The notes under the pieces: model-generated | Told to the model about the DNA's origin: nothing | What the model saw: only the letters and a program-made list of their open reading frames with translations | Databases searched by the model: none | Translations under genes and position numbers: made by a program | Part shown: piece by piece, positions 8,497 to 56,365 of the stretch | How the letters are laid out: each line of letters starts with the position of its first letter | Position numbering within the stretch: position 1 is the first letter of the stretch | Origin: a virus | Virus record (IMG/VR): IMGVR_UViG_3300036859_000863 | Span: 1 to 56,656 of that record | Strand: one strand, 5' to 3' | DNA length: 56,656 nt

Positions 8497-8730
8497 GTGG
8501 GCGTGACCGTCGCTGGGAACCGCGTCTCCTTGTCCGGGGAGATCGACGTCGCCGACCGCGAGAAGCTCGTCGGGGCGTTGGCGGAGGCCGCTGCCTATCA
8601 CCACGCCATGCGAGTGCATGATCTGCGGTCCGACGACATCCCTGATTGGGATGAGGACGTGCGCCCACTGGTCGAAACGTTCTTTGCTGGGCTCGCTTCC
8701 CTTTCCCTATGGGAAGAGGCCGAATCATGA
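8497..8730 (+). CDS. N-terminal half of a STAS-domain protein fused to cassette sequence
   Basis: A 77-residue product. Residues 1-33 (VSLSGEIDVADREKLVGALAEAAA) match the first strand, helix and loop of a STAS anti-sigma-factor antagonist domain. After residue 33 the sequence changes character (YHHAMRVHDLRSDDIPDWDEDV) and ends in SLSLWEEAES, part of a repeated gene seam. The matching second half of the STAS domain lies ~960 bases downstream at 9540-9710. The gene therefore looks like a STAS gene split by an insertion. GTG 8497 directly follows the upstream TGA; GTG 8503 is also possible. Confidence 0.6.
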   Translation: MGVTVAGNRVSLSGEIDVADREKLVGALAEAAAYHHAMRVHDLRSDDIPDWDEDVRPLVETFFAGLASLSLWEEAES

Positions 8731-8843
8731 AGTGGCTTCGCCAACGGCAATGTCTTGTGTGTTGGCGCTGGTCGGGACGTCATCTTGTGTGCAAGCACCA
8801 TAAGCGCGAGTGGCGTGCGATATGGGATGAGGGGGAATCGTGA
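8727..8843 (+). CDS. Small Cys/His protein, possible zinc finger
   Basis: A 38-residue product. ATG 8727 overlaps the preceding stop (ATGA) and its own TGA overlaps the next GTG (GTGA). It contains CLVCWRWSGRHLVCKHH, a CX2C...CX(1-2)H arrangement that could hold one zinc ion. It ends in IWDEGES, a variant of the C-terminal seam peptide shared by the cassette genes. Function unknown. Confidence 0.5.
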   Translation: MKWLRQRQCLVCWRWSGRHLVCKHHKREWRAIWDEGES

Positions 8844-9286
8844 GCCTGCGCCTCGTTCCCGTCTCATTCCGTGAAGCGTCGGCGTTCGTCGCGGCGTTGC
8901 ATCGCCATCACCGCCCGCCGGTGGGGATGAAGTTCGCTATCGGCGCAGCTGACGGCGACGTGCTGGTGGGGGTGGCGATGGTGGGTCGGCCTGTTGCCCG
9001 CCGTTTCGATGACGGTCTGACATTGGAAGTCAACCGCACCTGCACGGACGGGACACAGAACGCCAACAGCATGCTCTACGGGGCCGCCTGGCGAGCAGCG
9101 AAGGCTCTCGGCTATCAGCGGCTCATCACCTACACGCAAGCGGGAGAGAGCGGTACAAGCCTCTCTGCGGCCGGTTGGCGAGTCGTTGCCGAACGTGCAG
9201 CCCGCTCAGGTTGGGATACGCCCTCACGTCGCCGTGACGGCCACGGCGTTGATGGCATCGGCCGCACTTTGTGGGAGGCGTCGTGA
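8840..9286 (+). CDS. XF1762-like protein (GNAT-like family)
   Basis: A 148-residue product from GTG 8840. It carries the family hallmarks I associate with the XF1762 group found in many phages: AALHRHHRPPVGMKFAIG, VGVAMVGRPVARRFDDG, LEVNRTCTDGTQNANSMLYG and TYTQAGESGTSLSAAGW. The fold resembles GNAT acyltransferases, with the RHHRPP motif near the N-terminus, but no substrate is established. It is the largest gene of the cassette inserted in the STAS gene. Confidence 0.75.
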   Translation: MSLRLVPVSFREASAFVAALHRHHRPPVGMKFAIGAADGDVLVGVAMVGRPVARRFDDGLTLEVNRTCTDGTQNANSMLYGAAWRAAKALGYQRLITYTQAGESGTSLSAAGWRVVAERAARSGWDTPSRRRDGHGVDGIGRTLWEAS

Positions 9287-9315
9287 GCGTCCTATGGGAA
9301 GAGGGGGAAACATGA
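9283..9315 (+). other. Empty seam-to-seam mini-ORF
   Basis: GTG 9283 overlaps the stop of the XF1762-like gene and reads only VSVLWEEGET before TGA 9313-9315, which overlaps the next ATG. It therefore consists of a start followed straight away by the seam peptide (LWEEGE) that ends the neighbouring genes. It looks like a module whose middle has been lost, leaving only the joint. Confidence 0.4.
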
Positions 9316-9539
9316 CTCTGCAGGAGGCCAGAGACAACTTCTATAGCCGCGGCCATACCTATCAGACCGAGACGTACGTGCGGGCTTTGGAAGACGAGTA
9401 CGACGAGCTGCGCGGTTTGCTCACTGACATCGTCGCCAACGTATACCGGTTTGAAGGTTCCCAGTGGGTCGAGATTCCGCTATCAGTGATTGAACACCTT
9501 CGCTCTTACCTTTCCCTATGGGAAGAGAAACAGAAATGA
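9312..9539 (+). CDS. Small cassette protein of unknown function
   Basis: A 75-residue product from ATG 9312, preceded by a purine-rich ribosome site (GGAAGAGGGGGAA). It is predicted mostly helical and acidic (ETYVRALEDEYDELRGLLTDIV), with a C-terminal PLSVIEHLRSYLSLWEEKQK. The end repeats the LSLWEE seam found at the end of the split STAS fragment. No domain is recognised. Confidence 0.55.
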   Translation: MTLQEARDNFYSRGHTYQTETYVRALEDEYDELRGLLTDIVANVYRFEGSQWVEIPLSVIEHLRSYLSLWEEKQK

Positions 9540-9554
9540 GCCGTCGGGGGTGCG

Positions 9555-9710
9555 GTGGTGGTCGTCGACGTGACTCGCTGCACGTTCGTGGACTCGACGA
9601 TCCTCGCCGCGATCCTGGCGGACGCGGCGCCTGACGTGACGGTCGTCGGCGCGGTCGGCGAGGTGCGCCGCCTCTTCGAGATCACAGGTATGGAGCGGTA
9701 TCTCGCCTAG
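9555..9710 (+). pseudogene. C-terminal half of the split STAS domain
   Basis: The frame open from 9540 to TAG 9708-9710 reads VVVVDVTRCTFVDSTILAAIL, then VTVVGAVGEVRRLFEITGMERYL. This is the second half of a STAS domain, including the conserved VDS serine that is the phosphorylation site in anti-anti-sigma factors. GTG 9555 or 9558 could start a ~51-residue peptide, but there is no convincing ribosome site. It may be a remnant, or a separately made piece that pairs with the N-terminal half; the sequence alone does not tell. Confidence 0.6.
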
Positions 9711-26803: not shown

Positions 26804-27048
26804 CTGTTCCCTCTGCCCTAGAAGTCCTCATCGACGCGTTGCCGCCGTTAACGCACGGTGGACAGGGTTACTACCAGGAGGCGGTAGCCAGCAACCTGCT
26901 TGATGCGCTGTCTGCTGCCGGATACGTGATCGTTCCCCGCTGGCTGCTGATCGGCTTGGTCGACTGCCACGAGTTCCCCAGTTCCGAACGGTGCGAGTTT
27001 GTGGCCGAAGCCCGCCGGACGCTGGCTCCGGAAGCGAATACAGAATGA
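26800..27048 (+). CDS. Small hypothetical protein, start of low-GC small-gene run
   Basis: An 82-residue product from GTG 26800. It is helical (SALEVLIDALPPLTH, VASNLLDALSAAGYVIVPRWLLIGLVD) with a C-terminal EFPSSERCEFVAEARRTLAPEANTE. The motif LLDALSAAGYVIVP recurs in related form (ALDTLSLAGYTLG) in the protein at 28279-28830, hinting at a shared module. From here to ~29.3 kb the GC content visibly drops. Confidence 0.55.
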   Translation: MTVPSALEVLIDALPPLTHGGQGYYQEAVASNLLDALSAAGYVIVPRWLLIGLVDCHEFPSSERCEFVAEARRTLAPEANTE

Positions 27049-27224
27049 AGGCTCCGCGCAATCCAGACGGCACACTACGGTGGTGTGATACGGAAGGCCC
27101 GCCCGAAAGCACCTACGACGATACGGTCCCAATCGTGCGCTGCGCCGAGCTATACGGCCACGACGGAGCCCACGAGAACGGCTCATGGAAGTGGCCCGCC
27201 GAGCCAGAACCGAGCACAGAATGA
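27045..27224 (+). CDS. Small hypothetical protein
   Basis: A 59-residue product from ATG 27045 (ATGA). It begins KAPRNPDGTLRWCDTEGPPESTYDD and includes CAELYGHDGAHENGSW, where Cys and His residues might bind a metal. It ends in PEPSTE, part of a seam repeated at the ends of neighbouring genes. Confidence 0.5.
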   Translation: MKAPRNPDGTLRWCDTEGPPESTYDDTVPIVRCAELYGHDGAHENGSWKWPAEPEPSTE

Positions 27225-27379
27225 ACCGCGTCACTAGGGTGTACTTCCCGTTTCCGTTGCGCTCCGACTTCTTGGCGGTCATAGAGATGCCCGAGCGGTT
27301 CACGGCTGAGGAGGCGGAACGTGTCTGCGCCTATGTGCGGTCATTGGCTGTTGATGAGCCGGAACCGAGCGAGCCGTGA
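27221..27379 (+). CDS. Small hypothetical protein
   Basis: A 52-residue product from ATG 27221 (ATGA). It has a beta strand RVTRVYFPFPL, then a helix FTAEEAERVCAYVRSLA, and ends with DEPEPSEP. Its last codons (GGAACCGAGCGAGCCGTGA) are an exact copy of the end of the next gene. Confidence 0.5.
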   Translation: MNRVTRVYFPFPLRSDFLAVIEMPERFTAEEAERVCAYVRSLAVDEPEPSEP

Positions 27380-27495
27380 CCAAGTATCAATGCCCTCTGT
27401 GCCGAGGGCCGCACGGGTCGCAGGACTGCCCAAGCCTTGCTCCTACCGAACGTGATCTACCGGGGGTCCCAGTCGCGGAACCGAGCGAGCCGTGA
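27376..27495 (+). CDS. 39-residue protein with zinc-knuckle-like motif
   Basis: From GTG 27376 (GTGA overlap) to TGA 27493-27495. YQCPLCRGPHGSQDCPS gives CX2CX3HX4C, close to the CCHC knuckle of nucleic-acid-binding proteins. The C-terminus VAEPSEP is the repeated seam. Given the motif and the conserved overlaps it is probably a real, very small gene. Confidence 0.5.
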   Translation: MTKYQCPLCRGPHGSQDCPSLAPTERDLPGVPVAEPSEP

Positions 27496-27686
27496 GCGCC
27501 GACATCTGCCCTGTGGTCGGACAGACGTTAGAGGGCCATCACCACGGCTGTTCGCTCGGCAAGGGCCACGACGGCTACCACGTCTGTTTCAAGTGCCGAG
27601 GCACGTTCGCCGATTGGGATTGCTGGTCTGAGCCGCTAGCGAAACTGCGGGCGGTTTCTTCTACAGAGGAAGGGAACGAGCCGTGA
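27492..27686 (+). CDS. Small Cys/His-rich protein
   Basis: A 64-residue product from GTG 27492. It contains ICPVVGQTLEGHHHGCSLGKGHDGYHVCFKCRGTF, with several Cys and His spaced to bind one or two zinc ions. It ends AVSSTEEGNEP, a variant of the seam peptide that also ends the next gene (AVSSTEDQDQ). Function unknown. Confidence 0.55.
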   Translation: MSADICPVVGQTLEGHHHGCSLGKGHDGYHVCFKCRGTFADWDCWSEPLAKLRAVSSTEEGNEP

Positions 27687-27847
27687 GCGCCGAGCGCCAC
27701 CAAGACGGCGCTAAGCACACCGAACGCTGCAATCACGCCCTGTGTCCGTGCTACCTGGAAGGGATGGCAGCAGGGTTGAAGCCAACCGGGCGGGTGCTGC
27801 ATGAAGTGCTCGCGGCGGTTTCTTCTACAGAGGACCAAGACCAATGA
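27683..27847 (+). CDS. Small Cys/His protein
   Basis: A 54-residue product from GTG 27683 (GTGA). It has RHQDGAKHTERCNHALCPCYLEGMAAG and ends LAAVSSTEDQDQ. Its first codons (GTGAGCGCCGA) repeat those of the preceding gene, as though both starts came from one seam. The stop overlaps the next ATG. Confidence 0.5.
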   Translation: MSAERHQDGAKHTERCNHALCPCYLEGMAAGLKPTGRVLHEVLAAVSSTEDQDQ

Positions 27848-28107
27848 GCTACACGACCACCCACACTCACACGATCACCGAGTTCGCCAATCCGTACTTG
27901 CGCTGCGACGTGTGCGGTCAGCCGGTCGAAGGCATGATCGCTCTAGAGGGCCAGGCCACGACCTGTAACCACAGAGGCGAACTGATCCCCTGCCGCCACC
28001 TCGGCGTCACCAGCATCTGCCCGTCGTGGAGCCCGGTTGTGGGTGTCGGCTGCCGCTGCCAAGAACATCTCGGCTACGTACCACACGCAGAGGACCAAGA
28101 CCAATGA
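27844..28107 (+). CDS. Small Cys-rich zinc-binding-like protein
   Basis: An 87-residue product from ATG 27844 behind the AGAGGA ribosome site of the repeated seam. YLRCDVCGQPVEG, TTCNHRGELIPCRH and ICPSW...GCRCQEHLG give about eight Cys and several His, as in treble-clef or tandem zinc-ribbon proteins. It ends HAEDQDQ, the same seam peptide. Confidence 0.55.
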   Translation: MSYTTTHTHTITEFANPYLRCDVCGQPVEGMIALEGQATTCNHRGELIPCRHLGVTSICPSWSPVVGVGCRCQEHLGYVPHAEDQDQ

Positions 28108-28289
28108 GCGGGAGTCGTCAGAAGATCGTCAATGGCAAAGCCTTCGACTGGCCGTACACATGGCGCTGTCTTGACTGTGGCTACGTCGGCCATTCCAACT
28201 TCCACGATTTGAGCGGCCCGAACATTCATGGCACCCAGCCCGGCGTGTCCGGGTTTCTTCTACAGAGGACCAAGACCCATGAGCGTTGA
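28104..28289 (+). CDS. Small zinc-ribbon-like protein
   Basis: A 61-residue product from ATG 28104. It contains YTWRCLDCGYVGHSNFHDLSG (CX2C plus His). At its 3' end the same nucleotide seam as in the two preceding junctions is read in another frame (GFLLQRTKTHER instead of VSSTEDQDQ), so its TGA falls 9 bases inside the next gene. This suggests the seam was joined here without regard to the reading frame. Confidence 0.5.
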   Translation: MSGSRQKIVNGKAFDWPYTWRCLDCGYVGHSNFHDLSGPNIHGTQPGVSGFLLQRTKTHER

Positions 28290-28830
28290 CTGCTGTTCAA
28301 TCGAACACCCCCATAACGGGGCACCCCCACCGGACGGCCAACACCACTGGCTGAGAGCCGTGAGCGGAGAACCAGCAACGAGCCAAGACCTCTCAGGAGA
28401 CCAAGCCGTGAGCGTTGTAGAGGCACTTGCCAAGAGTCTGTGGGAGATCGGCAACCGACGAATCGGTCACCGGCCCTGGGAGACTGTCGCTGACACCTAC
28501 CTGGCGGAAGCGCAGGAGGCGCTCGACACGTTAAGCCTGGCGGGCTACACGCTCGGAACCACTGATCTTGAAGCCGAGCTCGCCACCCTCCACACCAAGC
28601 TCAGCGATTTGCAGTTGGCTATCGCTGATACGGAGGACGACCACCACGGCGAACATACGGCGTGGAAACAGGAGATCGCCACTCTTCGCAGCATCATCCG
28701 CCGCTACCAGTCGGGATGGTTCCTGAGCGACGATTGGCCCGGCAAGTGGTGTCACAAGCGCTGGCCGAACGAGATGCAAACTCCCGATGAGGTCGCCTTC
28801 TTCGAGCAGGAAGCCGAGAACGATGCCTGA
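28279..28830 (+). CDS. Composite small-module protein
   Basis: A 183-residue product from ATG 28279. The N-terminal ~40 residues (DCCSIEHPHNGAPPPDGQHHWLRAVSGEP) look like a Cys/His module, then a helical domain begins at SVVEALAKSLWEIGNRRIGHRPWETVAD. The DNA at 28360-28412 contains GCCGTGAGCG twice, the seam sequence, so this gene may be two modules fused in frame; GTG 28408 could be an older internal start. The C-terminal half is coiled coil plus WPGKWCHKRWPNEM and DEVAFFEQEAEN. Confidence 0.5.
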   Translation: MSVDCCSIEHPHNGAPPPDGQHHWLRAVSGEPATSQDLSGDQAVSVVEALAKSLWEIGNRRIGHRPWETVADTYLAEAQEALDTLSLAGYTLGTTDLEAELATLHTKLSDLQLAIADTEDDHHGEHTAWKQEIATLRSIIRRYQSGWFLSDDWPGKWCHKRWPNEMQTPDEVAFFEQEAENDA

Positions 28831-29314
28831 CATGTTCATGGGCCCACCAACCGAACCCGTTGCCGAAGCGGCACCGATGCCGACGAACCTTGCCGCTCAC
28901 CGAGCCGCTTGGAGTGCATCCCTTGAAGAAGAATCACCAGCGGGCGAAGCTGAACGTGCCTTCTCATACATCGAGGCTCTTGAAGCCGAGAACAAGACCC
29001 TCCGCTCACAGGTGGCTGAACTTCGTGGACGGCATGGATGGCAGACAGGTGTTGGAGCAGACGGTCGCCTTCTTCCAACAGGAGGCCGGGAGGTGAGTTG
29101 GTTTGACCCACCAATGCGAGACGGGTTCTACGATCAGGAGACTGCACTGATAGCGGTGGTTGAGTTCTGGATCAAGGGTGGCCCTAGTCACTCAGATGAT
29201 TTGCCGTTCGGCCCATACAAACGACAGCTTGAAGCGGTCGAGTCGGGAGTTGAGATGCTCAAGTCCGGAAGGTGGCAGTGGTTCACGATCGAGCAAAGGC
29301 TGGTGTTGCCGTGA
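28823..29314 (+). CDS. Small coiled-coil protein, possibly two fused genes
   Basis: A 163-residue frame from ATG 28823. The first half (LAAHRAAWSASLEEES, AFSYIEALEAENKTLRSQVAELRG) is a coiled coil. The second half (VSWFDPPMRDGFYDQETALIAVVEFW) could start on its own at GTG 29093. In another frame the DNA before 29093 reads QTVAFFQQEAGR then TGA overlapping that GTG, matching the end of the upstream gene (EVAFFEQEAEN). Either a frameshift has merged two genes, or the frames agree by chance. Confidence 0.45.
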   Translation: MPDMFMGPPTEPVAEAAPMPTNLAAHRAAWSASLEEESPAGEAERAFSYIEALEAENKTLRSQVAELRGRHGWQTGVGADGRLLPTGGREVSWFDPPMRDGFYDQETALIAVVEFWIKGGPSHSDDLPFGPYKRQLEAVESGVEMLKSGRWQWFTIEQRLVLP

Positions 29315-29778
29315 GCCCGTCACTGGACGAACTGCAAGTTGTTTACGAGCATGCCACCTACCCGCAGAACCTCAAGGCAGCCAAGGCGTACATCGATGCT
29401 CTCCGCCAAGCCCTAGAGGAAGCCACCGCCCGCTGCGATGAACTGATCCGACTCCACAACGAGGACTTCATCGGATCGGCACGATGGTACAGCGAGATGG
29501 TGGGGGAACGGGACGCCGCTCGGGTTGAGGTCAACCGCTTAGAGGCCGTGAACGAACGGCTACGGCACCGGCAGTGGTCGCCTCACGCGGTGGAAGAACT
29601 GCGAGCCGAGAACGAAATAGCGCATCACAACGTCGGGGCATTGCAAGCGGAAGTGTTTCAGCTTCGTTCCCTGCTCACCGAGATAGCCGCCTGTGACACC
29701 CGATCGGTCGGGGTCGGTTACACGACGCTAGAGATGACCAGCGACCTGTGGGACCGCATCCAACAAACCACGCCATGA
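29311..29778 (+). CDS. Coiled-coil protein upstream of terminase
   Basis: A 155-residue product from GTG 29311 (GTGA). A long helical protein: KAYIDALRQALEEATARCDELIRL, ERDAARVEVNRLEAVNERLRHR, ENEIAHHNVGALQAEVFQLRSLLTEI. Its stop overlaps the terminase small-subunit ATG. It may simply end the accessory operon; a packaging role is possible from position but has no sequence support. Confidence 0.55.
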   Translation: MSPSLDELQVVYEHATYPQNLKAAKAYIDALRQALEEATARCDELIRLHNEDFIGSARWYSEMVGERDAARVEVNRLEAVNERLRHRQWSPHAVEELRAENEIAHHNVGALQAEVFQLRSLLTEIAACDTRSVGVGYTTLEMTSDLWDRIQQTTP

Positions 29779-54730: not shown

Positions 54731-56295
54731 TGTCGCGCACGAAACCGGACGGGATCTTCTACCCGGCGAGGGCGGACACGTTCCCTCCCGGTTTCGCCGG
54801 CGCGGCGGGCACGGGGCTGCCGGTCGGCTGGCTGCAGCGCACCCAGGAGACGGTCGCCGACGCCCTCGCGGGCCGCGGCGTGTACAAGACGACGGTGCTG
54901 TACACGACGTCGGGGGTGTTCGACAAGGCCGACCACCCGAACCTGACCCGGATCGTGGTCACGGTCGTCGGCGGCGGCGGCGGAGGGGGCGGGGTAAATA
55001 CACAGGGGGCGAACCAGTTCGGCGAGGCCGGCGGCGGCGGTGGAGGTGGTGTCACCATGAAGGTGATCGGCGTCGCCGAGTTGCAGGACCGTGAACTCGT
55101 GACGGTCGGCGCCGGCGGGGCCGGTGGGTCCGCGGTCGGCGGGCCTGGCGGCGCCGGAGGTTTGACAAGGTTCGGGTTCCCGGAGCACTGCTCGGCGACC
55201 GGTGGTGGGGGCGCCTCCGGCGTGAACGTCAACGGTGACACCGTCGGCGGCACGGGCGGCGCCGGCCTGAACGGCACCGTAAACCTGACCGGCGACTGGG
55301 GCGGCCCAGGTAACGTCGTGCCTTCTGTCACCTGGCTGGCGATGACGAGGGGGGGCGGAAACACGTTCGCGGGATCGAGACGGAACGTCGGGTTCCCCGG
55401 CGCGGCCGGCTATTTCCCTGGCGGCGGCGGCGTCGGCGCCATCGTGGACGCGTCGTCGCCGGGCCTGGCGGGCGGCGCCGGCGCGGCCGGCATGGTCACG
55501 ATCGACGTCTACACGTCAGTCGACACGTCGGGGCTGTTCTACCCCGACAGGCCGGATACGTTCCCGCCCGGGTTCGCGGGCACGGTCGGCTCGGATCCGG
55601 GGGCGTGGCTGCAGAGGATGCAGGACACGGTACAGGCGGCGCTGCCGACGCTGGAAACGAACCGGCAGATGGCGGTGTTCACGGCCAGCGGATCGTTCGT
55701 CAAGGCGAGCTTCCCGGGACTTAAACGGGTACGGGTCACGGTCGTCGGCGGCGGAGGAGGCGGAGGAGGCGCCCCGGCGACGGGTGCGGGCCAGGCCGCC
55801 GAGGCCGCCGGTGGCGGCGCGGGAGGAACGGTGATCGAGGTCATAGAGGCGGCGGCGCTCGCCGCGTCCGAGACGGTGACGGTCGGCGGTGGCGGCGCAG
55901 GAGGGGCGGCGGGCGCCAACAACGGATCCGCGGGGGGAACGTCGTCGTTCGGGGCGCACTGCTCGGCCACTGGCGGCGCGGGCGGCGCTCAGGGAGTCGT
56001 GACGAGCGGAAACTTCGCTACGGCCAGCGGGCTCGGTGGCTCCGGCTCCGGTGGGCTGTTGAACCTGAACGGCAGCGAAGGGCACAACGGGCAGGTAGTA
56101 AACGGTCTCCGAACCCGCCAGGGACACGGCGGCCGGTCGACGGTATCCGGGGTTCGCCGTTGCCCCGGTGGCGCCGGCTCGACCGGCTACGAACGAGGCG
56201 GGGGCGGGTCGGCGGCCAGCGTCGGGGCGTCCACCGCGGCGGCGGCTGGCGGGGCAGGCGCCGCCGGGGTCGTGGTCGTCGAGGTGGTCACCTGA
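54730..56295 (+). CDS. Gly-rich tail-tip protein with two tandem modules
   Basis: A 521-residue product from ATG 54730 (TGATG). It holds two copies of one module (~1-260 and ~265-521). Each begins (D/S)G(I/L)FYP.R.DTFPPGFAG, continues with WLQR.Q(E/D)TV.(D/A)AL and a (T/A)SG.F.KA strand, then runs of poly-Gly (VVGGGGGGGG) and Ser/Thr/Ala segments. The first module ends VTIDVYT, the second VVVVEVVT. Such Gly-rich domains form polyglycine-type sandwiches at phage tips that bind receptors. A third module follows in the next gene. Confidence 0.72.
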   Translation: MSRTKPDGIFYPARADTFPPGFAGAAGTGLPVGWLQRTQETVADALAGRGVYKTTVLYTTSGVFDKADHPNLTRIVVTVVGGGGGGGGVNTQGANQFGEAGGGGGGGVTMKVIGVAELQDRELVTVGAGGAGGSAVGGPGGAGGLTRFGFPEHCSATGGGGASGVNVNGDTVGGTGGAGLNGTVNLTGDWGGPGNVVPSVTWLAMTRGGGNTFAGSRRNVGFPGAAGYFPGGGGVGAIVDASSPGLAGGAGAAGMVTIDVYTSVDTSGLFYPDRPDTFPPGFAGTVGSDPGAWLQRMQDTVQAALPTLETNRQMAVFTASGSFVKASFPGLKRVRVTVVGGGGGGGGAPATGAGQAAEAAGGGAGGTVIEVIEAAALAASETVTVGGGGAGGAAGANNGSAGGTSSFGAHCSATGGAGGAQGVVTSGNFATASGLGGSGSGGLLNLNGSEGHNGQVVNGLRTRQGHGGRSTVSGVRRCPGGAGSTGYERGGGGSAASVGASTAAAAGGAGAAGVVVVEVVT

Positions 56296-56365
56296 TGCCT
56301 ACGACCAGTCCGGACGGGCTGTTCTACCCCGACAGGCCGGATACGTTCCCGCCCGGGTTCGCGGG
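55531..56365 (+). repeat. 50-base direct repeat of tail module start
   Basis: Bases 55531-55580 and 56316-56365 are identical over 50 positions and code GLFYPDRPDTFPPGFAG. A diverged third copy lies near 54749. The identity at DNA level, beyond protein need, points to a recent duplication or gene conversion of the Gly-rich tail module. Confidence 0.75.

What the first reader, a model, noticed from the sequence alone, without database searches (positions are those of the whole stretch)
8701..9539. Repeated translational seams (J1) and an empty module inside the cassette
Four copies of a seam built on CTATGGGAAGAG each code a C-terminal LWEE/IWDEGE and give the next gene its ribosome site and overlapping start. 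At 9283-9315 a start is joined directly to a seam with nothing between, like a module whose body was lost. This suggests that genes are exchanged by recombination between identical seams, in which any body bounded by seams stays translated. It recalls start-associated sequences of cluster K mycobacteriophages but includes the stop side too.
Basis: partly seen in the sequence, partly recalled or inferred. Interest (0 to 1): 0.78.

Follow-up and report, generated by a model that had tools for sequence, protein, structure and literature searches.

The report
Repeated gene seams in a phage
In an uncultivated, GC-rich tailed phage, short repeated sequences that end one tiny gene and start the next mark places where whole tiny genes are gained or lost; a sister phage shows this directly for two other seam families, but the seam family reported here (J1) is found in this genome alone.

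Summary
CTATGGGAAGAG occurs exactly at 8707, 9292 and 9516, with a two-mismatch copy at 8820; each codes LWEE/IWDE and runs into an overlapping ATGA/GTGA start. A 19-nt repeat joins seams 1 and 4 (0 of 1000 shuffles). The start-plus-seam ORF 9283-9315 (MSVLWEEGET*) exists. New: the cassette (about 8591-9543) lies inside a STAS gene; joining the flanks restores the whole STAS_2 domain. A syntenic sister phage lacks both STAS and cassette. The J1 motif occurs in no other phage as a seam family, so exchange through J1 itself is inferred. The mechanism is directly supported in a second array of the same phage (27.0-29.1 kb): nine consecutive seams form a chain in which each shares 9-22 nt with the next, and the sister phage carries one of them (28/30 nt) joined straight to the neighbouring orthologous body, where this phage has 448 bp with three extra tiny genes. 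Another seam is tandem and empty in the sister, filled here. Known precedents are Corndog gene 14, the LRRHood 29-bp repeats and cluster K start-associated sequences; iterated chains that carry stop side plus start are a variant not found in the literature searched. Gain or loss direction and enzyme are unknown.

The parts
8497..8590 (+). 5' half of a STAS-domain gene (GTG start overlaps the collagen-like gene's stop)
   Evidence: Pfam STAS_2 profile positions 1-28 weak alone; joined with 9540-9710 the whole domain 1-80/80, 43.1 bits, above gathering 29.2
8591..9543 (+). inserted cassette (about 953 bp), edges placed at a shared GCCG (8587-8590, 9540-9543); the 4-nt repeat may be chance
   Evidence: interrupts STAS in frame; G+C about 60% against about 72% on both sides; sister phage lacks it
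8608..8730 (+). possible 40-aa ORF ending SLWEEAES, also read as the tail of the broken STAS frame
   Evidence: coding status not proven
8700..8730 (+). J1 seam 1: CCTTTCCCTATGGGAAGAGGCCGAATCATGA
8727..8843 (+). 38-aa ORF, CxxC..CxxH, ends AIWDEGES
   Evidence: no confident family
8820..8843 (+). J1 seam 2 (diverged copy): ATATGGGATGAGGGGGAATCGTGA
8840..9286 (+). Mom-like acyltransferase gene; native C-terminus RTLWEAS* with overlapping GTGA
   Evidence: Pfam Mom E 4.8e-5; 78% identity to a viral-contig relative; tail conserved in the family
9283..9315 (+). start joined directly to J1 seam 3 ('empty module', MSVLWEEGET*)
9312..9539 (+). 75-aa ORF, ends SLWEEKQK
   Evidence: no relatives
9509..9539 (+). 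J1 seam 4: 19 nt identical to seam 1, then AAACAGAAATGA
9540..9710 (+). 3' half of the STAS gene
   Evidence: STAS_2 profile 26-80
27027..27474 (+). 448-bp block of three tiny genes (27045, 27221, 27376), absent from the sister phage, where body and seam are joined directly
27475..27504 (+). J3 seam, 28/30 nt identical to the sister phage seam (L108 7630-7659) that follows a different body
27653..27693 (+). composite seam: left 21 nt as the next seam (27844), right 17 nt as the previous one (27492)
27817..27849 (+). J2 seam GGTTTCTTCTACAGAGGACCAAGACCAATGAGC; further copies at 28077 and 28252 (the latter out of frame with the upstream gene)
28795..28828 (+). J5 seam copy 1 (VAFFEQEAENDA*)
29067..29097 (+). 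J5 seam copy 2 (VAFFQQEAGR*), 272 nt from copy 1; 30 nt apart in the sister phage

Best explanation
The J1 seams are short gene-junction sequences that hold, in one stretch, the last codons of one gene, the ribosome site and the overlapping start of the next. They are duplicated at DNA level and work like sockets: short-homology recombination between two seams adds or removes whatever tiny gene lies between, and both neighbours stay translated because each seam supplies a stop and a coupled start. The J1 cassette (a Mom-like gene plus tiny ORFs) is a recently acquired block of such genes that landed inside a STAS gene and broke it. Shown: the repeats, their junction position, the split STAS domain, absence of STAS and cassette in a sister phage, and body gain or loss at two other seam families of the same phage. 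Inferred: that J1 was built in the same way, that recombination is by general or phage recombinases at short homology, and that the seams do work as ribosome sites.
For: J1 repeats are beyond chance. DNA-level descent rather than peptide convergence: CTA is 20 of 546 Leu codons and GAA 78 of 415 Glu codons in 11 large ORFs, yet all three exact copies use CTA-TGG-GAA. Bodies between seams are unrelated; only the tails match. STAS joined from the flanks is whole and the insert is lower in G+C. In the sister phage the collagen-like gene overlaps the holin-like gene directly, without STAS or cassette. J3: 28/30 nt shared with the sister at a different body, with 448 bp and three tiny genes extra here, the break falling where the orthologous body ends. 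J5: two copies 30 nt apart in the sister, 272 nt apart here, with copy-specific flanks matching. Adjacent seams in the chain are more alike than permuted orders: 29 of 200,000. Single seam-bounded genes with other seam sequences recur in unrelated phages (L063, L073, L169, L179).
Against: No J1 seam family in any other viral contig or genome. Only one sister genome, so gain and loss cannot be told apart. The J5 second copy here is out of frame with the likeliest ORF (28826-29314). The permutation test rests on nine seams chosen after seeing them. Enrichment of long junction repeats in unrelated phages is small (3 against 10 pairs of 16 nt or more, of 4807 and 52229). The sequence is a metagenomic assembly. 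Coding of the tiny ORFs is not proven.
Confidence: 0.66

Rival explanations
1. The seams are start-associated regulatory elements kept alike by selection on translation start (ribosome binding or a bound factor), not traces of gene exchange.
For: All lie at the ribosome-site position with purine-rich GGGAAGAG or AGAGGACC and an overlapping start. Cluster K and cluster EF phages have such elements (PMC3203893, PMC7302621).
Against: The identity extends over pyrimidine-rich stretches with no ribosome role (TTTCTTCTAC, CCTTTCCC) and into the next gene's second to fourth codons. Seams differ between arrays of one phage, J1 is absent from the sister, and neighbours share parts as a chain. Cluster K and EF consensus are at chance level here.
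Confidence: 0.15
2. Tandem duplication of gene plus seam, followed by fast divergence of the bodies while seams stay alike.
For: Adjacent seams are most alike. Weak body similarities exist across arrays (9312 and 29311, E 0.008).
Against: Neighbouring bodies show no similarity outside the tails, though the seams between them are up to 22 nt identical. The sister phage shows one seam with no extra bodies.
Confidence: 0.1
3. The LWEE tail is a selected C-terminal peptide motif.
For: Four tails read LWEE or IWDE, and Mom relatives end in LWE.
Against: Rare codons are repeated exactly. A W-E tail is what TGGGAG(G), a ribosome site in this frame, encodes; in array 2 one nearly identical seam (28252-28284) is out of frame with the gene upstream. 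Tails differ between arrays.
Confidence: 0.04
4. J1 seams are copies of a mom gene's 3' end, and the 'empty module' is the relic of a second mom copy replaced by the present one.
For: Mom relatives end in R[TV]LWE with an overlapping start, one with CTATGGGAGGCG (L026). The empty ORF follows mom directly.
Against: The resemblance covers three residues that a ribosome site in this frame would give anyway. No mom body remains at the other seams.
Confidence: 0.1

Closest known systems
Corndog gene 14 and YungJamal gene 60 insertions, cluster O mycobacteriophages (PMC4351075)
   Same: A single small gene at a stop/start junction flanked by a short direct repeat that is present once in relatives lacking the gene.
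   Different: There single cases; here a chain of up to nine seams whose shared part changes from junction to junction, plus a separate cassette with its own seam.
LRRHood 29-bp repeats around four genes (PMC3029335)
   Same: Block of genes flanked by direct repeats, single copy in relatives, one copy at a gene's 3' end.
   Different: Not iterated gene by gene.
Start-associated sequences, cluster K (PMC3203893) and Microbacterium cluster EF (PMC7302621)
   Same: Repeated sequence at ribosome-site position before many starts.
   Different: Those are spread over the genome, conserved across relatives and often tied to upstream inverted repeats; J1 is local, includes the stop side in coding sequence, and is absent from the sister.
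Short conserved boundary sequences at phage module borders (idea cited in PMC3029335)
   Same: Short conserved junction sequence as a recombination point.
   Different: There proposed between functional modules; here between genes of roughly 30-90 codons.

Membership tests
Start-associated sequences (cluster K / EF type) | motif at the ribosome-site position just before a start | tested here: met
   all four J1 seams run into an overlapping start
Start-associated sequences (cluster K / EF type) | consensus GGGATAGGAGCCC or GGGAAAGGACCCC | tested here: not met
   one 2-mismatch match each, below chance, not at J1
Start-associated sequences (cluster K / EF type) | many copies across the genome, conserved in relatives | tested here: not met
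   four copies in 0.8 kb; J1 absent from the sister genome
Start-associated sequences (cluster K / EF type) | associated 17-bp imperfect inverted repeats upstream of many copies | tested here: inconclusive
   by inspection of upstream sequence only: a short palindrome TTCCC-TAT-GGGAA in two copies; no systematic search was made
Repeat-flanked gene gain/loss (Corndog gene 14 type) | gene flanked by direct repeats at its junctions | tested here: met
   J1, J2 and J3 seams
Repeat-flanked gene gain/loss (Corndog gene 14 type) | single repeat copy or tandem copy without the gene in a relative | tested here: met
   met for J3 and J5 in the sister; not met for J1, where the whole locus is absent
Mom DNA-modification family (ORF 8840-9286) | sequence match to the family | tested here: inconclusive
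   Pfam Mom E 4.8e-5, 23.5 bits, below the 27.1 cut-off; one phage relative annotated Mom-like
Transposon or intron | transposase, terminal inverted repeats or self-splicing RNA | tested here: not met
   no such gene in the cassette; no Rfam match; only a 4-nt repeat at the edges

The most novel reading that the evidence does not exclude
Some phages assemble and reshuffle operons of tiny genes through iterated 'sockets': each seam is a composite whose left part is shared with one neighbouring seam and right part with the other, recording successive gene-by-gene insertions, with translation always kept intact.
Probability: 0.35. Interest if true: 0.72.

Novelty: new variant of a known kind. Interest (0 to 1): 0.52.

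Why it matters
How phages gain their many tiny genes of unknown function without breaking neighbouring ones is an open question; most mosaic boundaries show no shared sequence. Arrays in which every junction carries a readable trace of the last insertion, and a sister genome with empty and filled states, make the question testable by sequence search and by simple recombination assays.

Tried and rejected
J1 seam search in viral contigs and bacterial genomes: nothing related. J2 in viral contigs and J3 in bacterial genomes: no hit. Relatives of the 75-aa ORF, holin-like ORF and portal by exact peptides in viral contigs: none; the terminase alignment found the sister. Array and cassette bodies against 50,697 phages: no match. 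STAS in phages and in 16 terminase relatives: none. RNA element: no Rfam match. Whole-genome translated BLAST between window and sister was too noisy to use. Hairpin in the seam: only two of four copies have the palindrome, and predicted folds differ from copy to copy. Corndog records were not in the collection.

Full report
What is there. The four J1 seams are at the stated places. Each ends an open frame in LWEE or IWDE plus two to four residues and runs into a 4-nt overlapping start. The repeats are not chance: the 19-nt repeat and the triple 12-mer are not reached in 1000 shuffles of the region, and a 23-nt degenerate form, written to cover all four copies, is absent from 100 shuffles of the window. 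Exact reuse of the rare codon CTA (3.7% of Leu codons in 11 large ORFs) argues for copied DNA rather than convergent peptide tails. The 10-codon start-plus-seam ORF at 9283-9315 is real. The Mom-like gene just before it ends in LWEAS*, which is its family's own tail (R[TV]LWE followed by an overlapping start in many relatives), so it need not be a seam copy. TGGGAG(G) read in this frame gives W-E and is at the same time a ribosome site; that explains why such tails recur.

What it lies in. The ORF before the cassette matches the first third of the STAS_2 profile and the ORF after it the rest. Joined, they give the whole domain at 43.1 bits, above the curated cut-off, against 14.8 and 25.8 bits for the halves alone. 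So the cassette (about 8591-9543, lower in G+C) interrupts a STAS gene. The last seam's start leads only into an out-of-frame piece of that gene.

A second array. At 27.0-28.4 kb nine consecutive junctions each share 9 to 22 nt in register with the next; among 780 pairs of other starts in the window only 0.9% reach 9 and none reaches 12. The shared part changes along the chain: the seam at 27683 has the left part of its right neighbour and the right part of its left neighbour. Adjacent similarity exceeds nearly all permutations (29 of 200,000). The nine seams were chosen after inspection, so this number is indicative only. Bodies between seams are unrelated and have no confident relatives in the libraries searched.

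The sister phage. A terminase alignment brought in a 56,623-bp viral contig (L108; L188 and L189 hold the rest), syntenic with the window at about 68-85% nucleotide identity in core genes. Three comparisons matter. First, the J1 locus: there the collagen-like gene overlaps the holin-like gene directly, with neither STAS nor cassette, and no J1 motif occurs in the sister. Second, J3: the ortholog of gene 26800 runs straight into a seam that is 28/30 nt identical to window 27475-27504, whereas here 448 bp with three tiny genes lie between, and the genes after the seam differ beyond the first four residues. Third, J5: two FFEQEA seams are in tandem in the sister, 30 nt apart, and 272 nt apart here with a body between; the flanks of each copy match copy for copy. 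The sister therefore holds what looks like a true empty module.

Reading. Seams of this kind are the ends and points of gene-by-gene gain or loss. For J3 and J5 this is shown as a difference between two genomes, though not its direction. For J1 it is inferred from the same anatomy. Elsewhere, single genes bounded by 18-24-nt junction repeats occur in unrelated phage contigs (L063, L073, L169, L179) at low frequency, and published cases exist (Corndog gene 14, PMC4351075; LRRHood, PMC3029335). What appears undescribed in the papers found is the iterated, composite chain and the seam that carries stop side, ribosome site and start together. Start-associated sequences resemble it in position only (PMC3203893, PMC7302621).

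Limits. One sister genome, metagenomic assemblies, no proof that the tiny ORFs are translated, no recombinase tested.

Noticed in passing
8497-9710: STAS-domain gene split by the cassette; no STAS relative at this place was found in any phage record searched.
   Followed up: yes
8840-9286 and L015-L094: Mom-like proteins across many phages end in R[TV]LWE with an overlapping start for the next gene, so the C-terminus doubles as a ribosome site.
   Followed up: partly
9312-9539 and 29311-29778: The 75-aa cassette protein resembles part of an array-2 protein (55% over 20 residues, E 0.008), a possible shared body with different tails.
   Followed up: no
54751-56365 (50-nt exact repeat at 55531 and 56316) and 266-312: Repeated glycine-rich coding modules at both contig ends, perhaps one tail-fibre-like gene running across a circular junction.
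   Followed up: no
L063:3249-3350: 34-aa zinc-ribbon-like ORF right after a mom gene, bounded by identical 18-nt junctions AAGGAGCAGACGAAATGA.
   Followed up: partly
28279-28830: Two array genes appear fused in frame at a former seam (GTG at 28408, ACCAAGCCGTGAGCGTTG).
   Followed up: no
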